A stretch of DNA of 64,000 nucleotides. It comes from Paraburkholderia ginsengiterrae. Lineage in GTDB: Bacteria; Pseudomonadota; Gammaproteobacteria; Burkholderiales; Burkholderiaceae. The DNA is taken from positions 1 to 64,000 of the forward strand of contig NZ_LXKA01000332.1 in the NCBI RefSeq assembly GCF_001645125.1, read 5' to 3'. Shown in pieces: positions 270 to 13,225 of this stretch. Made by a program: the position numbers and the translations under genes. The notes below the pieces were generated by a model. The model saw nothing but the letters and a program-made list of their open reading frames with translations. It ran no database searches and was not told where the DNA came from. Numbering within the stretch: position 1 is the stretch's first letter; each line of letters begins with the position of its first letter.

Positions 270-1307
270 ATGCTCATTAAGAATGTAGCAGCCAGCCTGC
301 CCTCCAGGGTCGTGACGAACGAGGAAGTGGTCGACATGATCCGCTTTCACTCCACGGAGTACGAGGGCGACATCGACCGGGGAATGCGCACCATCAAGAC
401 CTTGCTCGACAGGAGCGGGCTGGTCAACCGGCGCTGGTGCGAAAGCCACGAGTCGCCACTCGATCACGTTGCGATGGCGACGCGCACCGTGCTTTCGGAA
501 ACGTATCTGCGGCCGGAACATATCGAGCTGTTCATTTATGTCGGCATCGGCAGAGGATTCCTCGAGCCGGGCAACAGCCACATGATGGCCGGCACACTTG
601 GGTTCGTTAATGCCGAATGCTTCGATGTGGTTGATGCCTGCATGAGCTGGACTCGCGCCATGTCGATTATCGACAGCCTTTTCAAGTCCGGTCAGTACAG
701 AAACGCTATGATAGTAAATGCCGAGTTCAATATGCTTGCAGGCGGTCCACTCTACCCCGGGAACTTTGCGTTGAAGAACCAGGCTCAGATCGAATATACC
801 TTGCCCTCGTTTACGATCGGTGAAGCGGCGACCGCGACCCTGCTCGTTGCAAAAGAGCCGGATAATTTCAGCTTCGCTTTCCGGGCGAAGCCGGTCGTAT
901 CGGATCTGTGCACCATTCCGATCCCGGGTTACGAAGGGTTCTGCCACCCATCCGAGCGGATCGGAAAAAATGGCGACATGCGTTTTACATCGTTTGGCCA
1001 TGACCTTCACAAGAATTCGGACGAACTGTCCGCGGTGCTGACCAAACTCCCGGTTCCCAAGAAAGATATCGACATTGTCTTCACCCACGCGTCATCCAAA
1101 GCGGCATGGCACGGCTATGGGGAAAAAGCAGGGATCGAGGACAAGATGTTCCACATCTATCCTGAGACCGGCAATCTCGTGTCGGCTTCGATCCCGGCTG
1201 CCATTTCACTGGCAAAGGACAGTGGATCGCTCAAGCGAGGAGACAGGGTGATGTGCTGGGTAGGCAGCGCCGGCATGTCATTCAACGCCAGCAGCTTCAA
1301 GTTCTGA
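270..1307 (+). CDS. Beta-ketoacyl-ACP synthase III (FabH/PqsD-like) enzyme
   Basis: This 345-residue thiolase-fold condensing enzyme is expected to accept an acyl group on an active-site cysteine and extend it by decarboxylative condensation. The triad is visible: Cys124 in DVVDACMSW, His273 in FTHASS and Asn302 in ETGNLVSAS, at the spacing usual for FabH-type enzymes. The ATG at 270 is chosen because MLIKNVAASLPSRVV is the normal N-terminus of the family; an in-frame ATG at 153 would add 39 unrelated residues. The gene sits 34 bp before a CqsS-like hybrid sensor kinase on the same strand. It is therefore more likely a dedicated specialised synthase, such as one making or modifying a fatty-acid-derived signal, than the housekeeping FabH, which normally sits among fatty-acid synthesis genes. 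The substrate cannot be read from the sequence. Confidence 0.85.
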   Translation: MLIKNVAASLPSRVVTNEEVVDMIRFHSTEYEGDIDRGMRTIKTLLDRSGLVNRRWCESHESPLDHVAMATRTVLSETYLRPEHIELFIYVGIGRGFLEPGNSHMMAGTLGFVNAECFDVVDACMSWTRAMSIIDSLFKSGQYRNAMIVNAEFNMLAGGPLYPGNFALKNQAQIEYTLPSFTIGEAATATLLVAKEPDNFSFAFRAKPVVSDLCTIPIPGYEGFCHPSERIGKNGDMRFTSFGHDLHKNSDELSAVLTKLPVPKKDIDIVFTHASSKAAWHGYGEKAGIEDKMFHIYPETGNLVSASIPAAISLAKDSGSLKRGDRVMCWVGSAGMSFNASSFKF

Positions 1308-1341
1308 GGCCGGGCCAATAAAGACAAAGATAATTAATGAC

Positions 1342-3915
1342 ATGAGAGCCATAACGGGGAGCATCAGCTATCTCAACCGGGTGATTTCCGACTCCGCCAA
1401 GGTGTCGGATTACAGCATATTGGCTGTTGGCGTGATCGGCACGATCGGGCATCCGGTGTACTGGTTCTGGTGGACGTTCGTCGATCCGCAACCCAACGAA
1501 AGTCTGCTGATGCGGGTTTTCGGCACCATTGCCTGCGCGCTGCTGCTCCTGCGCCGCTTCTGGCCCGCTTCGATGGCGCGCTTCCTGCCGTGGTATTACT
1601 TCGTAACGGTAGCCTATTCGCTACCGTTCTTTTTTACCTATTACCTGATTGCCGGTCACTATTCGACGCTCTGGTCCATGGCCGAGCTCGGGATGATATT
1701 TTTCCTGATCGCCATTTTTCCATCATTCGTTGCGTTGGCACTCAATCTGGTTGTGGGAATCGGCGTTGCCGTCCTGTGCGCCAGAATCTTCATCCCGCAA
1801 TCGGTCCATGTGAATGGACACCTGTTTCTCTACACGTATTTGCCGGTTTTCACTTTCGGCATTACCGCCGGCCTCACGTTCAGCTACAGCAACCGGAAGG
1901 GCATCGTCGCCCAGGCGAAAAACGGCGCCCTTCGAGCGCTCGCCGGCACGATCGCGCATGAAATACGCAATCCCCTCAGCCAGCTGCGGCACGTGCTGGA
2001 CCGCGTCGAAGAAACCCTGCCGGCGGCGACGGACGCCAACCCGTCGCCGGTCCTGTCGCGCGAACGGGCGGCGTTGCTCTACCGGCACCTGGCCCACGGG
2101 CAATTGTCGATCGAGCGCGGTTTGCGCGTCATCGCCATGACGCTCGACGAAGTCAGCGCGAAGCCGATCCGCTCCGATCACCTCACCTATCTGAGCGCGG
2201 CGGCCGCCACGCGCCAAGCACTGGACGAATACGGTTTCGGCGATCAGAAGGAGCGCGGCAAGGTCAGACTCGTGGTGCTGGAAGACTTCACCTTCAAGGT
2301 CGACGAAACCGTTTATCTGTTCACCCTGTTCAATCTGATCAAGAACGCACTGCATCACATTGCGGCGCATCCCGCCGCGACGCTCACGCTCACGGTTGAC
2401 CGGCAAACCGTGCTGGTTCATGACACAGGACCCGGCATCGCGCCCGAGATTCTGCCGCATCTTTTCGAGCCCTTTCGTACCGCGGGCAATTCGGCGGGTA
2501 CGGGACTCGGGCTGGCCTACTGCCAGCGTGCCATGCGCGCTTTCGGCGGCACCATTGCCTGCCGTTCGGAGGTGGGCAAATTTACGCAGTTCACGTTGCA
2601 GTTCCCGGCCGTTGCCGAAAGCGAGGTAGCGGACTACGAGAAGAAGACGCTTGAGCGCGCCGCGCCGTTTTTCAGCGGGAAGCGCATTCTTGTCGTTGAC
2701 GGCGATGCCGGCCAGCGGGCACGCGCCCGCCGCACGCTGGCGAAGGTGGGCGCGGACGTGAGCGAGGCAGCCGACGGCGCGGCGGTGCTCACGCTGCTGC
2801 GCCAGCCCGCGCCGTGGGATCTCGTGCTGATGGACCTCAACCTGCCGGTGCTGGACGGCTATACGACCGCCGAAACCATCCGCGCCGACCGTCAGAATCC
2901 GAACTGGAACGTGCTGATCGCCGCCTACACGGCGGAGCCCGGCAATGTGGCGCGGGTTCTCGCGCGGCGAGCCGGCATGGATGAGCTGGTCAGCAAATCC
3001 AGCAGCATCGTTGAATTGGTCAGCGCGCTTCAGACGCTCTTTGAAAACGGCGCCCGGCATCTTCTGGGCCAGCGATTCGACGGCTTCGCCGGCAAGACAA
3101 TTCTGGTCGCGGACGACGACACCTTCAGCAGGCTGGTGACCAAGGGCTATCTGGAGCGCTGCGGTGCCAGGGTTATCGAGGCCGAACACGGGCGGGCGGT
3201 GCTGGCGCGCCTGCATGAGAACGCGGCTGTCGACGCCATTGTGATGGATTTGAACATGCCGGGCATGGGCGGCGTGGAAACGACCGCGCTGATTCGCGTT
3301 CGCACCGACGCCTATGGCAAGGTGCCGATCATTGCGTTGACCAGTCAATCCGATATGGACGCTGTGCAGTCGTGTCTCGCGGCGGGCATGAACGAGGTCA
3401 TGATCAAACCCGTGCAGCTGGTCTCCCTTTACGCCTGCCTCACGAGACAGTTCGCGCAGCACCGAACCGTCCACGCGCCGGGCGGCGCAGCGGTGCCGCC
3501 CACGCCCGCGGCGGCCGCCGGCAGGCCCACGCCCTTCAAGGAAGAACCGCTGCTCGATGAGAAGCACCTTCAGGAACTGGTGGCGCTCGATCTGCTGGAC
3601 CAAACGTTCCTCAACGGCATCGAGCAGCTTCGGTCAACCGTGACGCGACTCGGCACCAGCGTCACGGCCCGCGACCTCGTTTCGACACAAGGCACCTTGC
3701 ACGTCCTTCTCGGCATCAGCGGCAATATCGGCGCAAAGGCGCTGCATCAGTTCGTGCGGCAGATCTACCCGCGACTCGTGGAAGGTGAATGGCCCGCGGA
3801 GGCGGAATGGCTGGCGCGCATCCGCCTGTTGAGCGACCGTTCGGCCCCCGCGCTGCGAACCTATTTCGCTACGGCCAAAGCGCGTAGCGATCATCGGGAC
3901 GCGATGAGCGATTGA
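1342..3915 (+). CDS. CqsS-like hybrid sensor histidine kinase with two receiver domains and a C-terminal Hpt
   Basis: This 857-residue membrane kinase starts with about six hydrophobic segments (residues 22-185). They resemble the Vibrio CAI-1 receptor CqsS as I recall it, especially SLPFFF (93-98) and HYSTLWSM (106-113). A HisKA domain follows with phospho-acceptor His206 in AHEIRNPL, then an HATPase domain (N-box LFNLIKNALHH, G-box DTGPGIAP). Receiver 1 spans about 448-560 (Asp498) and receiver 2 about 586-705 (Asp636). A C-terminal Hpt-like helix bundle carries His787 in a HVLLGISGNIG motif. It therefore holds a whole His-Asp-His relay, whereas Vibrio CqsS has one receiver and uses the separate LuxU. 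Receiver 1 has VVDGD where an acidic pair is usual. No separate response regulator is seen in the window. An alpha-hydroxyketone-type ligand is inferred from family membership only. Confidence 0.85.
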   Translation: MRAITGSISYLNRVISDSAKVSDYSILAVGVIGTIGHPVYWFWWTFVDPQPNESLLMRVFGTIACALLLLRRFWPASMARFLPWYYFVTVAYSLPFFFTYYLIAGHYSTLWSMAELGMIFFLIAIFPSFVALALNLVVGIGVAVLCARIFIPQSVHVNGHLFLYTYLPVFTFGITAGLTFSYSNRKGIVAQAKNGALRALAGTIAHEIRNPLSQLRHVLDRVEETLPAATDANPSPVLSRERAALLYRHLAHGQLSIERGLRVIAMTLDEVSAKPIRSDHLTYLSAAAATRQALDEYGFGDQKERGKVRLVVLEDFTFKVDETVYLFTLFNLIKNALHHIAAHPAATLTLTVDRQTVLVHDTGPGIAPEILPHLFEPFRTAGNSAGTGLGLAYCQRAMRAFGGTIACRSEVGKFTQFTLQFPAVAESEVADYEKKTLERAAPFFSGKRILVVDGDAGQRARARRTLAKVGADVSEAADGAAVLTLLRQPAPWDLVLMDLNLPVLDGYTTAETIRADRQNPNWNVLIAAYTAEPGNVARVLARRAGMDELVSKSSSIVELVSALQTLFENGARHLLGQRFDGFAGKTILVADDDTFSRLVTKGYLERCGARVIEAEHGRAVLARLHENAAVDAIVMDLNMPGMGGVETTALIRVRTDAYGKVPIIALTSQSDMDAVQSCLAAGMNEVMIKPVQLVSLYACLTRQFAQHRTVHAPGGAAVPPTPAAAAGRPTPFKEEPLLDEKHLQELVALDLLDQTFLNGIEQLRSTVTRLGTSVTARDLVSTQGTLHVLLGISGNIGAKALHQFVRQIYPRLVEGEWPAEAEWLARIRLLSDRSAPALRTYFATAKARSDHRDAMSD

Positions 3916-7741: not shown

Positions 7742-9130
7742 CTACGCCTTATCCGACTTGCCGGCGGCGTTGGCGAGCTTGCTCAGCAAGCGATCGACCA
7801 GCCAGGGCTGCCGGTCTTCGTCTTCCGCGCGCTCCTTGCGCCGGATTGCGTCGCGCACGGTAATCGAGCCCACGTAACGGATCGGTTCAGGCGGGAAATA
7901 GCCCAACGGTCCATTCGTCAAAGGACTGCGCGTCCATTCGTTGTCCAGATCGAGCAATAATGACGACAGGATCTGCCCGCCCATATAGGTCGGCCCCACG
8001 CCGTTGCCGGAATAGCCGAATCCATAGAGCACGTTCGGTGCGCCGTCGAGCCGGCCGAAAAATGGGAAACCCGTAACCGACCGGTCCGATGGACCGTTCC
8101 AGCTCGCCGTCACCGGCACCTCGCGCAACGCCGGGAAGAAATCGTGCAGACTGCGCGTCAGATCGGCTTCATAAGGCGAGCGCTGATCGAACACCGGCGC
8201 GATCCGGCCACGCCATGCGAAGGTATTGCCGCCCTTGCCGAGCATCAGCCGGCCGTCCGGCGTGCTGCGATAGTAGTAGACGAAGATGCGTGAATCGAGC
8301 ACCGACACACCATCTTTCAGGCCCATCTGGTGCAGCAAATCCGGGCACTTCTCGGTGACGATCATGTCGCTGGAGACAACCGCCAACGTTCTTTCGAACT
8401 GCTTGAAGCGGCTCGCCATCCACGCATTGATCGCGAGCACCAGCTTGCGTGCCGTCACGCTGCCAGCCGGCGTGTTGACGGTCACACGTTCGCCGCCCGT
8501 GAAGTCGAGCATCGGCGTGCGTTCGTAAATGCGAATGCCCATTTCGATCGCAACGCGCCGCAATCCGCGCACGAGCTTGCCGGGATGAACCGTTGCCGCG
8601 ACCGGCGAATACACGCCGCCGAGATTGCGTGCCGAGCCGGAACGGCTCGCCACTTCCTCCGGTGGGAGATGCTGGTAGGAGTTGATGCCATGCTCGCCAA
8701 GCGCGGCAATCACCGGATCGAGCAGGCCGATTTGCGCGCGTGAGGTCGCCGTGTAGAGCGTGCCGTCGAGCCGGAGTTCGGCGTCGACAGCGTGCTCGGC
8801 ACAGAAGTCGCGAATCCGTCCCACCGCGGCCTCGGACGCCTTCACCAGGCGGATCGCCTCGGCCTCGCCGAACAGACGCCGCAGCGTGAAGAACTTCGTC
8901 GACCACGTCAGCAGGCAGCCACCGTTGCGGCCGCTGGCACCCGCCCCGCACAGATCGCTCTCGATGATCGCGATATCGAGAGCGGGGTTTTTCTGTTTGG
9001 TCTGGATGGCCGTCCACAAACCGGTGAAACCGCCGCCGACAATGCAGACATCGGCGGTGGTCGACCCTTGCAGGGCGGGCGCCAATGAACCATCGGCAAA
9101 GAGGGCTTGTTCAATCCAGAACGGACGCAT
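7742..9130 (-). CDS. FAD-dependent aminophosphonate oxidoreductase (DAO superfamily)
   Basis: This 462-residue flavoenzyme of the D-amino-acid/glycine oxidase superfamily has a dinucleotide-binding motif GGGFTG at residues 32-37. GAGASGRNGG follows, and a C-terminal segment (YGFGYSGNGVGPTYMGGQ) closes the FAD site. The subfamily is recognised by its consistent position in AEP transport and degradation clusters. The proposed reaction is oxidative deamination of AEP, or of an N-alkylated AEP, to phosphonoacetaldehyde, the same product as PhnW. Here it is the last gene of the operon, 72 bp after phnW. The ATG at 9130 has only a weak Shine-Dalgarno sequence. The substrate is inferred from context, not from residues. 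Confidence 0.82.
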   Translation of the reverse strand: MRPFWIEQALFADGSLAPALQGSTTADVCIVGGGFTGLWTAIQTKQKNPALDIAIIESDLCGAGASGRNGGCLLTWSTKFFTLRRLFGEAEAIRLVKASEAAVGRIRDFCAEHAVDAELRLDGTLYTATSRAQIGLLDPVIAALGEHGINSYQHLPPEEVASRSGSARNLGGVYSPVAATVHPGKLVRGLRRVAIEMGIRIYERTPMLDFTGGERVTVNTPAGSVTARKLVLAINAWMASRFKQFERTLAVVSSDMIVTEKCPDLLHQMGLKDGVSVLDSRIFVYYYRSTPDGRLMLGKGGNTFAWRGRIAPVFDQRSPYEADLTRSLHDFFPALREVPVTASWNGPSDRSVTGFPFFGRLDGAPNVLYGFGYSGNGVGPTYMGGQILSSLLLDLDNEWTRSPLTNGPLGYFPPEPIRYVGSITVRDAIRRKERAEDEDRQPWLVDRLLSKLANAAGKSDKA

Positions 9131-9202
9131 AGATAACTCGCATTGATGTGACTGTGTGATTCTCGTTGTGACTCACGCTATAACTCGCGGTGTAACCCGC
9201 GC

Positions 9203-10333
9203 TCAGGCCGGCGCCTGCGCCGATACCTGATTGATCCCCATCGCTTTCAGCGTATCGGCGATCGCCGCGACGGCGCCGGGAATGCCGGATTCGCCGAAGT
9301 GGCCGATACAGCCGACGCGAAACGTTTCCAGCTGGGTCAGCTTGCCCGGATACAGGATGTAGCCGCGCTTTTTCACTTCCGCATAGAACGTCTTGAAGTC
9401 GTAGTTGGGATCGTCCGGCGCATGGAACGTGACGATGATCGGCGCCTGAATCGACGGATCGAGGAAGGTCCGGAAACCGAGCGCGGCCATGCCTTCGATC
9501 AACGCCCGGCAATTGCTCGCATAGCGCGCACCGCGCGCTTCGAGACCGCCCTCTTCCACGTATTGCACGATCGCCTGATCGAGGGCCGCTACCACATGCG
9601 TGGGCGGCGTGAAGCGCCACTGTGTCGTGCGGTTCATATAGACCCACTGATCGTACAGATCCATCGCGAGCGAAGGGCTATTGCCTTCGCATTGTTCGAG
9701 CGTGCTGCGGCGAATGATCACAAAGCCCATGCCGGGGACGCCTTCCAGACATTTCCCGGAGGCGGCGACGACGGCGTCGAATGGCGTACGCCGCGCGTCG
9801 ATGTCGATGGCGCCGAACGAACTCATCGCGTCGACGATCAGACGGCGGCCGTGCTTCGCGACCACCTCGGCAATCTCGTGCAGCGGATTGAGCACGCCCG
9901 CGCCGGTTTCACAATGCACGAGCGCGACGTGCGTAATGCCGGGATCGGCTGCGAGTGCGCGATCGACATCCGCCGCCTTGACCTGGGTATCCTCGGGATA
10001 GTCGATGGTCTGATGACGGCGCCCAAGCGCGCGGCAAATCTTCGCAATACGCTGGCAATAGGCGCCGTTGTTCGGCACCAGCACATGTCCGTCGCGTGGC
10101 ACCAGCGTGCCGATCGCGGCTTCCACGGAGAACGTGCCGCTGCCTTGCAACGGCACGCATTCATGCGTGTCTTCGCCATGCACGATGCGCAGCGTCTGCT
10201 GGCGCACGCGGGCGGTGATCTGGTTGAAGTCGCCGTCCCACGATCCCCAATCGCGCAGCATGGCCTGACGCGTGCGATCGGAGGTCGTGAGCGGACCGGG
10301 TGTGAGCAAAACAGGTGCGGAGGACAGGTTCAC
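9203..10333 (-). CDS. phnW: 2-aminoethylphosphonate:pyruvate transaminase
   Basis: This 376-residue class V PLP enzyme converts AEP plus pyruvate to phosphonoacetaldehyde plus alanine. It starts [18 protein letters not shown], the conserved opening of PhnW. PLOP-family landmarks follow: [10 protein letters not shown] (phosphate binding, 63-72), [11 protein letters not shown] (PLP aspartate D168) and Lys194 in [10 protein letters not shown] as the Schiff-base lysine. Length and motifs are normal. The start codon is GTG, supported by AAGGAG six bases upstream. The gene follows phnU in the same orientation after a 76-bp spacer with 14-bp tandem repeats. It supplies the substrate for PhnY. Confidence 0.93.
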
Positions 10334-10364
10334 AACAGCTCCTTATCGATCTGGATGATTGTAT

Positions 10365-10406
10365 GGTTCAACTTCAGCGGTTCAACCACAGCGGTTCAAC
10401 TACAGC
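10365..10406. repeat. Three 14-bp tandem repeats between phnU and phnW
   Basis: Three adjacent copies of GGTTCAACYWCAGC run from 10365 to 10406, directly after the phnU stop in the direction of transcription. A degenerate partial copy overlaps the phnW start. They may be slippage products. Their intra-operon position leaves open an effect on mRNA processing or phnW translation. Confidence 0.75.
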
Positions 10407-10409
10407 GTT

Positions 10410-12137
10410 TCACCCACGGCGCGAGGTTCGCCATGCCTGGGTTCTACGCAACACGCCATGCGACACGCAGGCAAACAGCACACAGGCGAATGCCGCGGTC
10501 ACGAGGACCAGTGTGGCCATGGCCGCAGCCGGCCCAATCTGTCCGGCGTCGTCAAGATTGAGAATCGCGACGGAGGCCGGCTGGGTATCGGGGGAATAGA
10601 GAAACGCCACAGCCGATACCGTAGTCATGCCGTTGACAAACAGATAGCGCGCAATCTGCAGGATCGACGGCAGGCACACCGGCACGGTGACGCGCCAGAA
10701 CGTTTTGTAGAACGGCACTTTCAGCGAGGCCGAGACCGCTTCGAACTCGTTGTCGATCTGACGCAGCGCGGTGACCGCGGTCAGGTGGCTAGATGAGTAG
10801 TAGTGCACGACTGTGACAACGGCGAGTAGCGCCAGCGTGCCGTACAGGCCGTTCAAAGGGTTGACGGGCGAGTTGAACAGAAAGATGTAGCTGATGCCGA
10901 GCACGAGACCCGGCACGCCCATCGGCAGGATCGCGCACAGGTTGATAAAGCCGCGCAGCCAGCGTGGCCCACGCGTCTTCTCGACGAGATACGCGCCGCC
11001 GAACACAACGACGGTACCGCCTAGCGCCACGCACGAGGCCATTTTCAGGCTGTTTTTGTACGCATCGAAAATCCCGGCGCCGATCAGCCCCATCTTGTAG
11101 TGCTGCAGACCGAGACTCATCTGATACGGCCAGAACTTCACGAACGACGCGAAGACGGAAATGCCGACCACCGCCAGCAGCAGCGCACAGACGATTGCAC
11201 AATACCCGAGCATCGTCATGTCGAAACCACGTGACGGTTTGGGCTGGTACGGCGTCGAGCGCGCGCCGAGTTGCGACTGCTGCTTGCGGCGAATGAAGAA
11301 GTCGACGGCGAATGCCACCAATGCCGGACACAGCAGCAGCAGGCTGACCACCGCACTCCGGTTGAAGTCCTGCAAGCCGATGATGAGCTTGTAGATATCG
11401 GTGGAGAGCACCGAATACGGGCCGCCGATCACCACGGGCACGCCGAAGTCGTTGATGCAGATCGTGAACGACACCATGGTCGCGCTGATCAGACCATACT
11501 TCGCGCCCGGCAACGTGATCGTGAAGAACTTGCGCACGCGGCGCGTGCCCATCGCGTCGGCCGCTTCGTATAAGCGTCCGTCGGAGAGCGATAGCGCGGT
11601 CACCAGAATCATCAGCACATGCGGAAACGAAGCGTAGACCAGACTGCAGACGATGCCTGGCAGTCCATAGATCGAATGGCCGTGAAGCAGCGGCTTCAGA
11701 ATTCCCGAGTTGCCGAACCAGTAGATGAACGACACGGCGGACAACAACGTCGGCGCGAGCAGCGGCAGCAGCGCCACCGTGCGCACGGCGTTCTTCATCG
11801 GCATGCAGGAACGGGTCAATGCGTACGCAAACGTAAAGGCCATCGGAATCACGATCGCCGTCACGAGGCTGGCGACCGTGACCGAATGCAGCGTGGACCG
11901 CAACACGCCCGAGTCCGCCAGATAGCCGGTGAAATTGGCCAAGCCGACAAAGTGGCCATCCGCGTCGACAAAACATTTGCCGATCACCATCGCCAGCGGC
12001 AGCAGCAGAAACACGCCGAGAAACGCGGACATCAGCAGGAGCGCCAGTTGCGCGACCCGGTCGTGCCAATGACTTATCTGGCGCACCTCGGTGTGACTTT
12101 CGTCGGCACCGCGGCGCTCTGTCAGAACGGCGCTCAT
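10410..12137 (-). CDS. phnU: AEP ABC transporter, fused double permease (PhnU2 type)
   Basis: This 575-residue inner-membrane protein contains two binding-protein-dependent permease halves in one chain. The first (about residues 25-290) includes VTVASLVTAIVIPMAFTFAY and the coupling-loop region LYEAADAMGTRRVRKFFTIT. The second (about 320-565) includes ALRQIDNEFEAVSASLKVPF before its own C-terminal helices. Both carry the EAA-type loop that contacts the ATPase. Fused permeases of this size are typical of the AEP/iron-type family found in Burkholderia. The ATG at 12137 overlaps the phnT stop by four bases (ATGA). It works with PhnS and PhnT to import AEP. Confidence 0.9.
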   Translation of the reverse strand: MSAVLTERRGADESHTEVRQISHWHDRVAQLALLLMSAFLGVFLLLPLAMVIGKCFVDADGHFVGLANFTGYLADSGVLRSTLHSVTVASLVTAIVIPMAFTFAYALTRSCMPMKNAVRTVALLPLLAPTLLSAVSFIYWFGNSGILKPLLHGHSIYGLPGIVCSLVYASFPHVLMILVTALSLSDGRLYEAADAMGTRRVRKFFTITLPGAKYGLISATMVSFTICINDFGVPVVIGGPYSVLSTDIYKLIIGLQDFNRSAVVSLLLLCPALVAFAVDFFIRRKQQSQLGARSTPYQPKPSRGFDMTMLGYCAIVCALLLAVVGISVFASFVKFWPYQMSLGLQHYKMGLIGAGIFDAYKNSLKMASCVALGGTVVVFGGAYLVEKTRGPRWLRGFINLCAILPMGVPGLVLGISYIFLFNSPVNPLNGLYGTLALLAVVTVVHYYSSSHLTAVTALRQIDNEFEAVSASLKVPFYKTFWRVTVPVCLPSILQIARYLFVNGMTTVSAVAFLYSPDTQPASVAILNLDDAGQIGPAAAMATLVLVTAAFACVLFACVSHGVLRRTQAWRTSRRG

Positions 12138-13225
12138 TGGAGTCGCTCCTTCGCGGCGGAGAAGACGCACACGTGTTCGCGATTGATGGCGAGATTGAAC
12201 CGCGCCCCCGTTTGCAGGCGGGTGCGATGCATTTCGTGAAACGACAGATCGGCGACGATCTCCTGCTCGCCCAGCCCGTCCACCTTGAAACTCACCCGGC
12301 AGAACGCACCGAGAAATTCGAGCTTCTCGACGGAGGCCGGCAGCAGATTGTCCGCCTCGCTACCCGGCGCGCTGAGGTGAATGTCTTCCGGACGCACGAA
12401 GGCGGACACCTTCGAACCCGGCATCGCCTGTTGCGTTCCGCAGCCATAGCGCAGCGCGACGGAGCCTGCTTTGAGACTGCCGTCGCGTGCCACTTCGGCG
12501 GGGATCAGATTGACTTTGCCAATGAAGTCGGCAACGAACGGCGATGCCGGCTCACGGTAGATTTCGAGCGGCGTGCCGATCTGCTCGATCACGCCATGAT
12601 TCATCACCACGATCCGGTCGGCCATTGAAAGCGCTTCTTCCTGGTCGTGCGTGACCATGATGGTGGTCACGCCGAGGCGCTGCTGCAGCTGGCGGATTTC
12701 CTGGCGCAGCCGCACGCGCACGCGGGCATCGAGCGCCGAGAGCGGCTCGTCGAGCAGCAACAGTCCCGGCGAAGTCGCCAACGCGCGCGCCAGGGCGATG
12801 CGTTGCTGCTGCCCGCCGGACAGCTGGTTGGGATGCTTGCGCTGCGCATCCGGCAAGCCGACCAGTGCAAGCAGTTCGTTCACCCGCTCGGCAATCGCCG
12901 CGCGTTTCATTCTGCGGTTCACCAGACCATAGGCCACATTGTCGAAGATGGTCAGATTCGGAAACAGCGCGTACGACTGAAAAACGATGCCGTAATCGCG
13001 AAGCTGCGGCGGCAAGCGCGAAATATCGCGGCCGTCCTGCATGATCTGGCCGGCGCTCTGCGTTTCCAGACCGGCAATAATGCGCAGCAAGGTGGTCTTG
13101 CCGCATCCCGACGGTCCGAGGAAGCACAACATCTCCCCCTTCTTCACGCCGAGATTGATGTCCTCCAGAACCGGCGTGTCGTTGAACCGCTTATAGACCC
13201 GCTGCACGCTCAAATACGCTGTCAT
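12134..13225 (-). CDS. phnT: AEP ABC transporter ATP-binding protein (PhnT2 type)
   Basis: This 363-residue ATPase energises AEP import. Walker A is FLGPSGCGKTTLL, the Q-loop is FQSYALFPNLT, the ABC signature is LSGGQQQRIALARAL, and Walker B plus D-loop is LLLLDEPLSALD. The H-loop is VTHDQEEA. A C-terminal TOBE-like domain (about 240-363) is present, as in the spermidine/iron importer group. The ATG at 13225 has GGAGGAG just upstream and is preferred over a TTG four codons earlier. It is coupled to phnU by an ATGA overlap. Specificity for AEP comes from the neighbours. Confidence 0.92.
   Translation of the reverse strand: MTAYLSVQRVYKRFNDTPVLEDINLGVKKGEMLCFLGPSGCGKTTLLRIIAGLETQSAGQIMQDGRDISRLPPQLRDYGIVFQSYALFPNLTIFDNVAYGLVNRRMKRAAIAERVNELLALVGLPDAQRKHPNQLSGGQQQRIALARALATSPGLLLLDEPLSALDARVRVRLRQEIRQLQQRLGVTTIMVTHDQEEALSMADRIVVMNHGVIEQIGTPLEIYREPASPFVADFIGKVNLIPAEVARDGSLKAGSVALRYGCGTQQAMPGSKVSAFVRPEDIHLSAPGSEADNLLPASVEKLEFLGAFCRVSFKVDGLGEQEIVADLSFHEMHRTRLQTGARFNLAINREHVCVFSAAKERLQ

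What the first reader, a model, noticed from the sequence alone, without database searches (positions are those of the whole stretch)
270..3915. A ketoacyl synthase III paired with a CqsS-like receptor kinase: candidate acyl-signal system without CqsA in view
Sequence: an intact FabH-type enzyme (Cys124, His273, Asn302) is followed 34 bp later by a membrane kinase whose N-terminal half looks like the Vibrio CAI-1 receptor CqsS. Known: CqsS/LqsS receptors normally pair with CqsA/LqsA, PLP-dependent alpha-hydroxyketone synthases. Inference: the condensing enzyme may make, trim or modify the ligand, giving a different chemistry from CAI-1. The left edge cuts the region, so a CqsA homologue could lie just outside.
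Basis: partly seen in the sequence, partly recalled or inferred. Interest (0 to 1): 0.75.

Follow-up and report, generated by a model that had tools for sequence, protein, structure and literature searches.

The report
Ketone-maker gene paired with CqsS-like receptor
A two-gene unit in Paraburkholderia and a few other bacteria couples an enzyme of the kind that joins two fatty-acid chains head to head with a membrane receptor of the cholera CAI-1 receptor type, which looks like a chemical-signalling system with a new kind of signal maker.

Summary
Window 270-1307 encodes a ketosynthase (Cys124, His273, Asn302), followed 34 bp later by an 857-aa hybrid kinase with a CqsS-type sensor. The enzyme is not FabH: it carries the OleA/PpyS catalytic Glu-Pro (E99-P100), kept in 71 of 71 rows tested. 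It probably belongs to a group that the PpyS paper left without a role. The pairing is real: 24 of 24 intact genus orthologues precede the kinase. Of 72 loci in named genomes, all 28 at 52% identity or more have the receptor (one decayed), including Ramlibacter and Thiosymbion; 0 of 44 at 49% or less do. Across 98 genomes 20 of 20 synthases have their receptor; CqsA has another receptor type (38 of 38) and is independent of the synthase. No CqsA passes cut-off in this genome. A second kinase there follows an acyl-reductase-like gene; the two kinase cores match, the sensors differ. Best reading: a CqsS-type signalling pair whose synthase makes a ketone or beta-keto-acid-like ligand. Reaction, ligand and diffusion are unproven.

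The parts
270..1307 (+). OleA/PpyS-type ketosynthase III (345 aa), proposed signal synthase
   Evidence: Pfam ACP_syn_III and ACP_syn_III_C; best PDB sequence match OleA; clade of receptor-linked synthases
564..569 (+). Glu99-Pro100, equivalent of OleA Glu117-Pro
   Evidence: E99 aligned to OleA 117, Asp in 5vxh, whose title says E117D; 71 of 71; 14 of 14
639..641 (+). Cys124, acyl-carrying nucleophile (OleA Cys143)
1086..1088 (+). His273 (OleA His285)
1173..1175 (+). Asn302 (position 315 in the OleA chain)
1342..3915 (+). CqsS-type hybrid sensor kinase (857 aa)
1342..1941 (+). N-terminal membrane sensor module (residues 1-200), about 31% identical to the own-genome paralogue while the rest is much closer
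1957..1959 (+). His206, phospho-acceptor in AHEIRNPL
   Evidence: motif reading
2680..3036 (+). Receiver 1 with Asp498 (codon 2833-2835); second acid-pocket residue is Gly here
3094..3456 (+). Receiver 2 with Asp636 (codon 3247-3249)
3640..3830 (+). C-terminal phosphotransfer-like segment with His787 (codon 3700-3702) in HVLLGISGNIG; motif recalled, Pfam does not report it

Best explanation
The two genes are a cognate signal synthase and receptor. Cys124 takes an acyl group; Glu99 of the partner subunit acts as base, as Glu117 does in OleA and Glu105 in PpyS; the enzyme joins two acyl thioesters head to head into a beta-keto product that leaves as a beta-keto acid, ketone or pyrone-like molecule. 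This lipid-soluble product is sensed by the CqsS-type membrane module of the kinase next door, which changes phosphate flow His206 -> receiver Asp -> C-terminal His and then to a response regulator, perhaps the RR-kinase protein that co-occurs with this receptor group. Shown: pairing, conservation, catalytic residues, distribution, and sensors that track synthase type. Inferred: reaction, ligand, diffusion between cells, phosphate route.
For: Adjacency: 24 of 24 intact genus orthologues (20, 4); in named genomes 27 of 28 loci at 52% identity or more have a full sensor and 1 is decayed, against 0 of 44 at 49% or less. Receptor-linked synthases are one clade, 100/99. No gene besides the pair recurs in all loci. 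Co-occurrence in 98 genomes: synthase with receptor A 20/20, plus 2 receptors without synthase, p = 7e-19; no link with CqsA, p = 0.61. E99-P100 in 71 of 71, at OleA Glu117. PMC7064751 passages: all but two OleA proteins have Glu117 followed by Pro, and it is essential. PMC4578411 passages: PpyS E105 is needed for the photopyrone signal; [quoted passage not shown] these genera are among the hits. Sensors follow synthases while cores follow lineage: sensor tree A+Ramlibacter 99/97, core tree A+B 99/96, A+Ramlibacter rejected in the core, p = 4.6e-6. At the site taken as CqsS Ser107: Ser in 9 of 9 CqsA-linked, Thr in 32 of 32 reductase-linked, Ala/Cys/Met/Leu in 32 of 32 ketosynthase-linked sensors; PMC3376566 passages give W104/S107 as head-group determinants. 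RR-kinase 'G2' is in 40 of 45 genomes with receptor A or B and in 3 of 53 others.
Against: No ligand, assay or mutant. Identity to OleA is low and the enzyme is far below the NCBIfam cut-off of its best model (109 against 285 bits). Fold search does not separate OleA from FabH; a FabH ranks first. A+B sensors held together are not rejected at 0.05 (p = 0.08), and the clades tested were named after seeing the trees. The Thiosymbion sensor sits weakly with the reductase-linked group (85/53), and its kinase frame is only 430 aa (L219), so the hybrid layout is not universal. The Ser107 mapping rests on the W-x-x-S pattern, not on an aligned V. cholerae sequence; the Trp is Arg in 3 ketosynthase-linked sensors, and among 15 CqsS-like sensors with no synthase in the held flank only 7 have Ser there. 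A crude hydropathy scan gave four segments, not six. Receiver 1 lacks one acid-pocket residue here. Neighbouring genes can also mean regulation of a metabolite rather than cell-cell signalling. Genomes in the co-occurrence counts are related, so the p values are too small.
Confidence: 0.72

Rival explanations
1. The synthase makes a lipid or antibiotic-like product and the kinase is its local regulator or self-sensor; there is no cell-to-cell signalling.
For: Relatives at 49% identity or less have no such receptor in the held flank; the few whose neighbours I looked at (L060, L061, L153-L155) lie beside genes that read like FabD, hotdog, RND, acyl-ligase or P450 genes (names from reading the sequences, no family search).
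Against: No further gene recurs in all receptor-linked loci; the sensor belongs to the family of CqsA-linked receptors; receptors persist without the synthase, as expected if ligand can come from other cells.
Confidence: 0.17
2. The synthase changes membrane acyl chains and the kinase senses membrane state.
For: None direct; the enzyme should act on acyl chains and the sensor is a membrane module.
Against: Type-specific sensor residues track each synthase type; OleA/PpyS-type condensation does not feed phospholipid acyl chains (recalled).
Confidence: 0.05
3. A CqsA product is the ligand and the ketosynthase only supplies or alters its acyl part.
For: The sensor family is shared with CqsA-linked receptors.
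Against: Own genome has no CqsA over cut-off (best 192 of 428 bits); 11 of 20 synthase-bearing genomes lack CqsA and the association is nil (p = 0.61); CqsA has its own receptor type in 38 of 38.
Confidence: 0.04
4. Chance neighbours.
For: None found.
Confidence: 0.01

Closest known systems
CqsA/CqsS (Vibrio) and LqsA/LqsS (Legionella) alpha-hydroxyketone systems
   Same: Receptor sensor family, neighbouring synthase and receptor genes, acyl-derived ligand expected
   Different: Synthase is a ketosynthase III of the OleA/PpyS kind, not a PLP enzyme; hybrid kinase with two receivers and a phosphotransfer-like end; Ser107-equivalent replaced
PpyS/PluR photopyrone signalling (Photorhabdus)
   Same: A head-to-head ketosynthase with a catalytic Glu makes the signal (PMC4578411 passages)
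   Different: PluR is a LuxR-type receptor; here a membrane kinase. The enzyme probably belongs to the uncharacterised second PpyS-homologue group; PpyS itself was not aligned
OleA (olefin and beta-lactone pathways)
   Same: Cys-His-Asn triad and Glu-Pro motif; best PDB sequence match
   Different: Low overall identity; linked to a receptor. No third gene recurs beside the pair in all loci; oleBCD were not searched for
PhcB/PhcS/PhcR (Ralstonia)
   Same: Acyl-derived signal sensed by a sensor kinase (abstracts); an RR-kinase partner type is recalled for PhcR, and G2 has receiver, HisKA and HATPase
   Different: PhcB is a methyltransferase; homology of G2 to PhcR and of this sensor to PhcS was not tested

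Membership tests
CqsS/LqsS-type sensor kinases | N-terminal membrane sensor homologous to CqsA-linked receptors | tested here: met
   One profile finds types A, B and C; 14 columns invariant in 9 rows of types A-D, among them PQP, R and WP
CqsS/LqsS-type sensor kinases | Six transmembrane helices | tested here: inconclusive
   Crude hydropathy gave four segments; the alignment covers the whole sensor
CqsS/LqsS-type sensor kinases | Histidine kinase core with phospho-acceptor His | tested here: met
   HATPase_c; His206 by motif; Pfam HisKA not reported
CqsA/CqsS alpha-hydroxyketone system | CqsA/LqsA PLP synthase linked to the receptor | tested here: not met
   No NF005526 match over cut-off in this genome; no CqsA match in the sequence held around 28 receptor-linked loci
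CqsA/CqsS alpha-hydroxyketone system | Trp104/Ser107 head-group residues | tested here: not met
   Window has Trp111 but Ala114; Ser absent in 32 of 32 ketosynthase-linked sensors; site mapped by pattern
OleA/PpyS head-to-head ketosynthases | Cys-His-Asn triad plus Glu followed by Pro at OleA 117 | tested here: met
OleA/PpyS head-to-head ketosynthases | Condensation of two acyl thioesters | not testable with these tools
   Needs purified enzyme
NCBIfam PRK09258 (3-oxoacyl-ACP synthase III; its link to OleA is recalled) | Curated score 285 bits | tested here: not met
   109.3 bits
Housekeeping FabH | Groups with genome FabH and lacks the Glu | tested here: not met
   26% identity; separate in the tree; Phe at that site in 3 of 3 FabH
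Quorum sensing | Diffusible, density-dependent signal | not tested
   No experiment

The most novel reading that the evidence does not exclude
CqsS-type receptors form a plug-in family: one kinase chassis carries sensor modules that are exchanged together with unrelated acyl-processing synthases (PLP enzyme CqsA, head-to-head ketosynthase, acyl-reductase-like enzyme, and possibly a haem-oxygenase-like iron enzyme), giving a set of separate fatty-acid-derived signals within one genus. The uncharacterised PpyS/OleA second group would then include dedicated signal synthases.
Probability: 0.5. Interest if true: 0.88.

Novelty: new variant of a known kind. Interest (0 to 1): 0.78.

Why it matters
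It gives a concrete function to test for a widespread ketosynthase group that was reported without a role. It also adds a synthase class to CqsS-type signalling, in Paraburkholderia and elsewhere. The sensor/core split offers a natural experiment: closely related kinase cores with sensors matched to different synthases, so ligand specificity can be mapped. Receptors kept after loss of the synthase hint at listening to neighbours.

Tried and rejected
Housekeeping FabH was rejected. CqsA outside the window: the left side is the contig end; no CqsA over cut-off in the genome (the model also passed in 0 of 14 control genomes). Fold search of the synthase model (pLDDT 74) confirmed the ketosynthase III fold but did not separate OleA from FabH. 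The acyl-reductase-like model was too poor to use (pLDDT 46). A PDB search with the sensor profile found nothing up to E = 5. The first FabH comparison picked wrong frames and a second script failed; one search replaced them (17 of 20 pair-bearing genomes, 136 pairs): synthase, sensor and core distances correlate with FabH distances (0.82-0.86), so inheritance inside the genus looks largely vertical although flanks differ between groups of genomes.

Rows dropped: L216 (decayed) and L222 (in-frame stop) from the synthase tree; L162, L175 and L220 lacked the pattern used to split sensor and core, and L218 had too short a core; one search regained L220, dropped L218 and kept 6 of the 14 class-level rows; one search dropped identical sensors and frames without the pattern.

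Literature: ten searches listed no paper whose title or abstract start couples a ketosynthase to a CqsS-type kinase; the lists were capped, and the library lacks most subscription journals and all preprints. PMC3285556, PMC3376566, PMC7064751 and PMC4578411 were seen as passages only; the rest as listings with starts of abstracts.
Full report
What is there. The window begins at a contig end (C333:1-64000 of an 8.53 Mb genome in 393 contigs). A 345-aa ketosynthase III (270-1307) is followed after 34 bp by an 857-aa hybrid kinase (1342-3915). Pfam sees the ketosynthase III domains, HATPase_c and two receivers. By motif reading the phospho-sites are His206, Asp498 and Asp636, with a phosphotransfer-like HVLLGISGNIG near the end (His787); Pfam reports neither HisKA nor the last domain.

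The enzyme. Its best PDB matches by sequence are OleA entries. In the profile alignment Cys124, His273 and Asn302 fall on OleA 143, 285 and 315, and Glu99 falls on 117, where 5vxh shows Asp (its title is OleA E117D). Glu99-Pro100 is present in 71 of 71 rows tested, while three FabH proteins of the genus have Phe-Pro. Passages of PMC7064751 say that all but two of the OleA proteins aligned there have Glu117 followed by Pro and that this Glu is essential. [quoted passage not shown] The relatives found in named genomes include these genera. PpyS itself was not aligned, so placement in that second group is inferred from taxa and motif. Own FabH is 26% identical.

The pairing. In the 98-genome genus sample 20 genomes have an intact orthologue (80-100% identity) and all 20 have the kinase 24-42 bp downstream; in one of them (G065) the kinase frame is broken. 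Four further genomes show the same. G032 has a split synthase and a truncated kinase. At family level 22 of 399 genomes matched at E <= 1e-30, three of them outside the genus and those distant; these three and the two 38-39% relatives inside the genus have no such kinase nearby. In named genomes 72 loci were found. L195-L222 (28 loci, 52-93% identity) all have the receptor downstream: 27 with a full sensor (L195 has a broken kinase frame, L222 an in-frame stop in the synthase) and one (L216, P. ultramafica) decayed. They are Paraburkholderia/Burkholderia records (23), Candidatus Thiosymbion (2) and Ramlibacter (3). L223-L266 (44 loci, 33-49%) have none in the sequence held, which is short for some. 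In the tree the receptor-linked rows form one clade (27 rows, 100/99). Sets from G handles and named records overlap and are not added up. Around the pair, flanking genes differ between groups of genomes and are shared only within groups.

Receptor types. A profile of the sensor found matches in 65 of 98 genus genomes; I sorted them by score and frame length. Type A (22 genomes) goes with the ketosynthase. Type B (35, including this genome) follows a gene of about 408 aa in 31 of 34 fetched loci plus the own locus; the other three keep only fragments. That gene resembles long-chain acyl-ACP reductase weakly (TIGR04058, E 3e-4, 20 of 450 bits; PDB 9e4x E 9e-9). Type C (38) is a shorter kinase that occurs in exactly the 38 genomes with CqsA over cut-off. 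One genome (G048) has a further hybrid receptor behind a haem-oxygenase-like iron protein (Pfam Haem_oxygenas_2); this is a single case. Counts both/first only/second only/neither: synthase-receptor A 20/0/2/76, p = 7e-19; CqsA-receptor C 38/0/0/60, p = 5e-28; synthase-CqsA 9/11/29/49, p = 0.61; synthase-receptor B 12/8/23/55, p = 0.018; receptors A or B with G2 40/5/3/50, p = 4e-18. They treat related genomes as independent. G2 is a protein with a receiver, HisKA and HATPase, counted at E <= 1e-80; four of its matches contain stop codons. At class level 17 of 369 genomes (this one included) had CqsS-like sensors, one of them beside CqsA in the short flank held.

Sensor modules. Own kinases A and B are 20-40% identical in 40-residue blocks over residues 1-200, 62% in the next block and 55-90% beyond; third-position identity rises from 0.18-0.42 to 0.50-0.90. 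In the sensor tree Paraburkholderia type A joins Ramlibacter (99/98, 99/97); in the core tree type A joins type B (99/94 and 99/96), and A+Ramlibacter is rejected (p = 4.6e-6). The reverse test is weaker: A+B sensors held together, p = 0.08; and the groups were named after one search had been seen. Module exchange, or gene conversion between cores, would give this; either way each sensor stays with its synthase. Thiosymbion does not fit neatly: its sensor joins type B weakly (85/53) and the L219 kinase frame is 430 aa. PMC3376566 passages name W104 and S107 of V. cholerae CqsS as head-group determinants. Taking the W-x-x-S of CqsA-linked sensors as that pair, the Ser site is Ser in 9 of 9 CqsA-linked, Thr in 32 of 32 reductase-linked, and Ala 27, Cys 2, Met 1, Leu 2 in 32 ketosynthase-linked sensors; Pro127 is in 32 of 32 of the last and in none of the first two. 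Among 15 CqsS-like sensors with no synthase in the held flank the site is mixed (Ser 7, Thr 3, Asn 2, Ala, Cys, Glu 1 each), and Trp is Arg in 3 ketosynthase-linked sensors (95 distinct sensors).

Orphans. Two genomes have receptor A without the synthase: G022 keeps a remnant of the synthase C-terminus (residues 320-345, 69% identity, E 1e-7 in a search of five short stretches) just upstream, G011 shows none. Three type B receptors keep reductase fragments. Receptors outliving synthases fits listening to a signal made by others, or early decay.

Conclusion. The pair is a conserved unit and most likely a signal synthase with its receptor. By its catalytic residues the product should be a head-to-head condensation product: a beta-keto acid, the ketone formed by its decarboxylation (as noted for OleA in PMC7064751), or a pyrone if one partner is a beta-ketoacyl chain as proposed for PpyS. 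CqsS ligands are ketones too (PMC3285556 passages), which makes a ketone attractive; this is inference. I put about 0.8 on the enzyme making the ligand or its skeleton, and about 0.5 on a ketone or beta-keto acid.

Noticed in passing
L039 7607-12593 (own genome C348): Second pair in the same genome: acyl-ACP-reductase-like protein (weak match), type B CqsS-like hybrid kinase and convergent receiver-HisKA-HATPase protein.
   Followed up: partly
L141 3451-6336 (G048): Haem-oxygenase-like iron protein just upstream of another CqsS-like hybrid kinase; single case.
   Followed up: partly
L102 and L103 (G022, G011): Type A receptors without the synthase; G022 keeps a C-terminal remnant of it.
   Followed up: yes
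L133, L134, L135: Type B receptors with only fragments of the reductase-like gene upstream.
   Followed up: partly
window 2680-3036: Receiver 1 has Gly where most relatives printed have the second acidic-pocket Asp (VVDGD against VVDDD); L040 has Asn.
   Followed up: partly
L041/L195 (kinase), L059/L216, L222 (synthase): Decayed members: kinase frame broken in G065, synthase and kinase broken in P. ultramafica, one in-frame stop in the R. rhizophilus synthase.
   Followed up: partly
   Followed up: partly
   Followed up: no
L238 (Microcystis): 45% relative of the synthase with a CqsA-like PLP enzyme (25% identity) about 2.7 kb upstream.
   Followed up: no
window 7742-12170: Genes that read like FAD oxidoreductase, aminotransferase and ABC permease, perhaps an aminophosphonate cluster (recalled annotation, no family search).
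   Followed up: no
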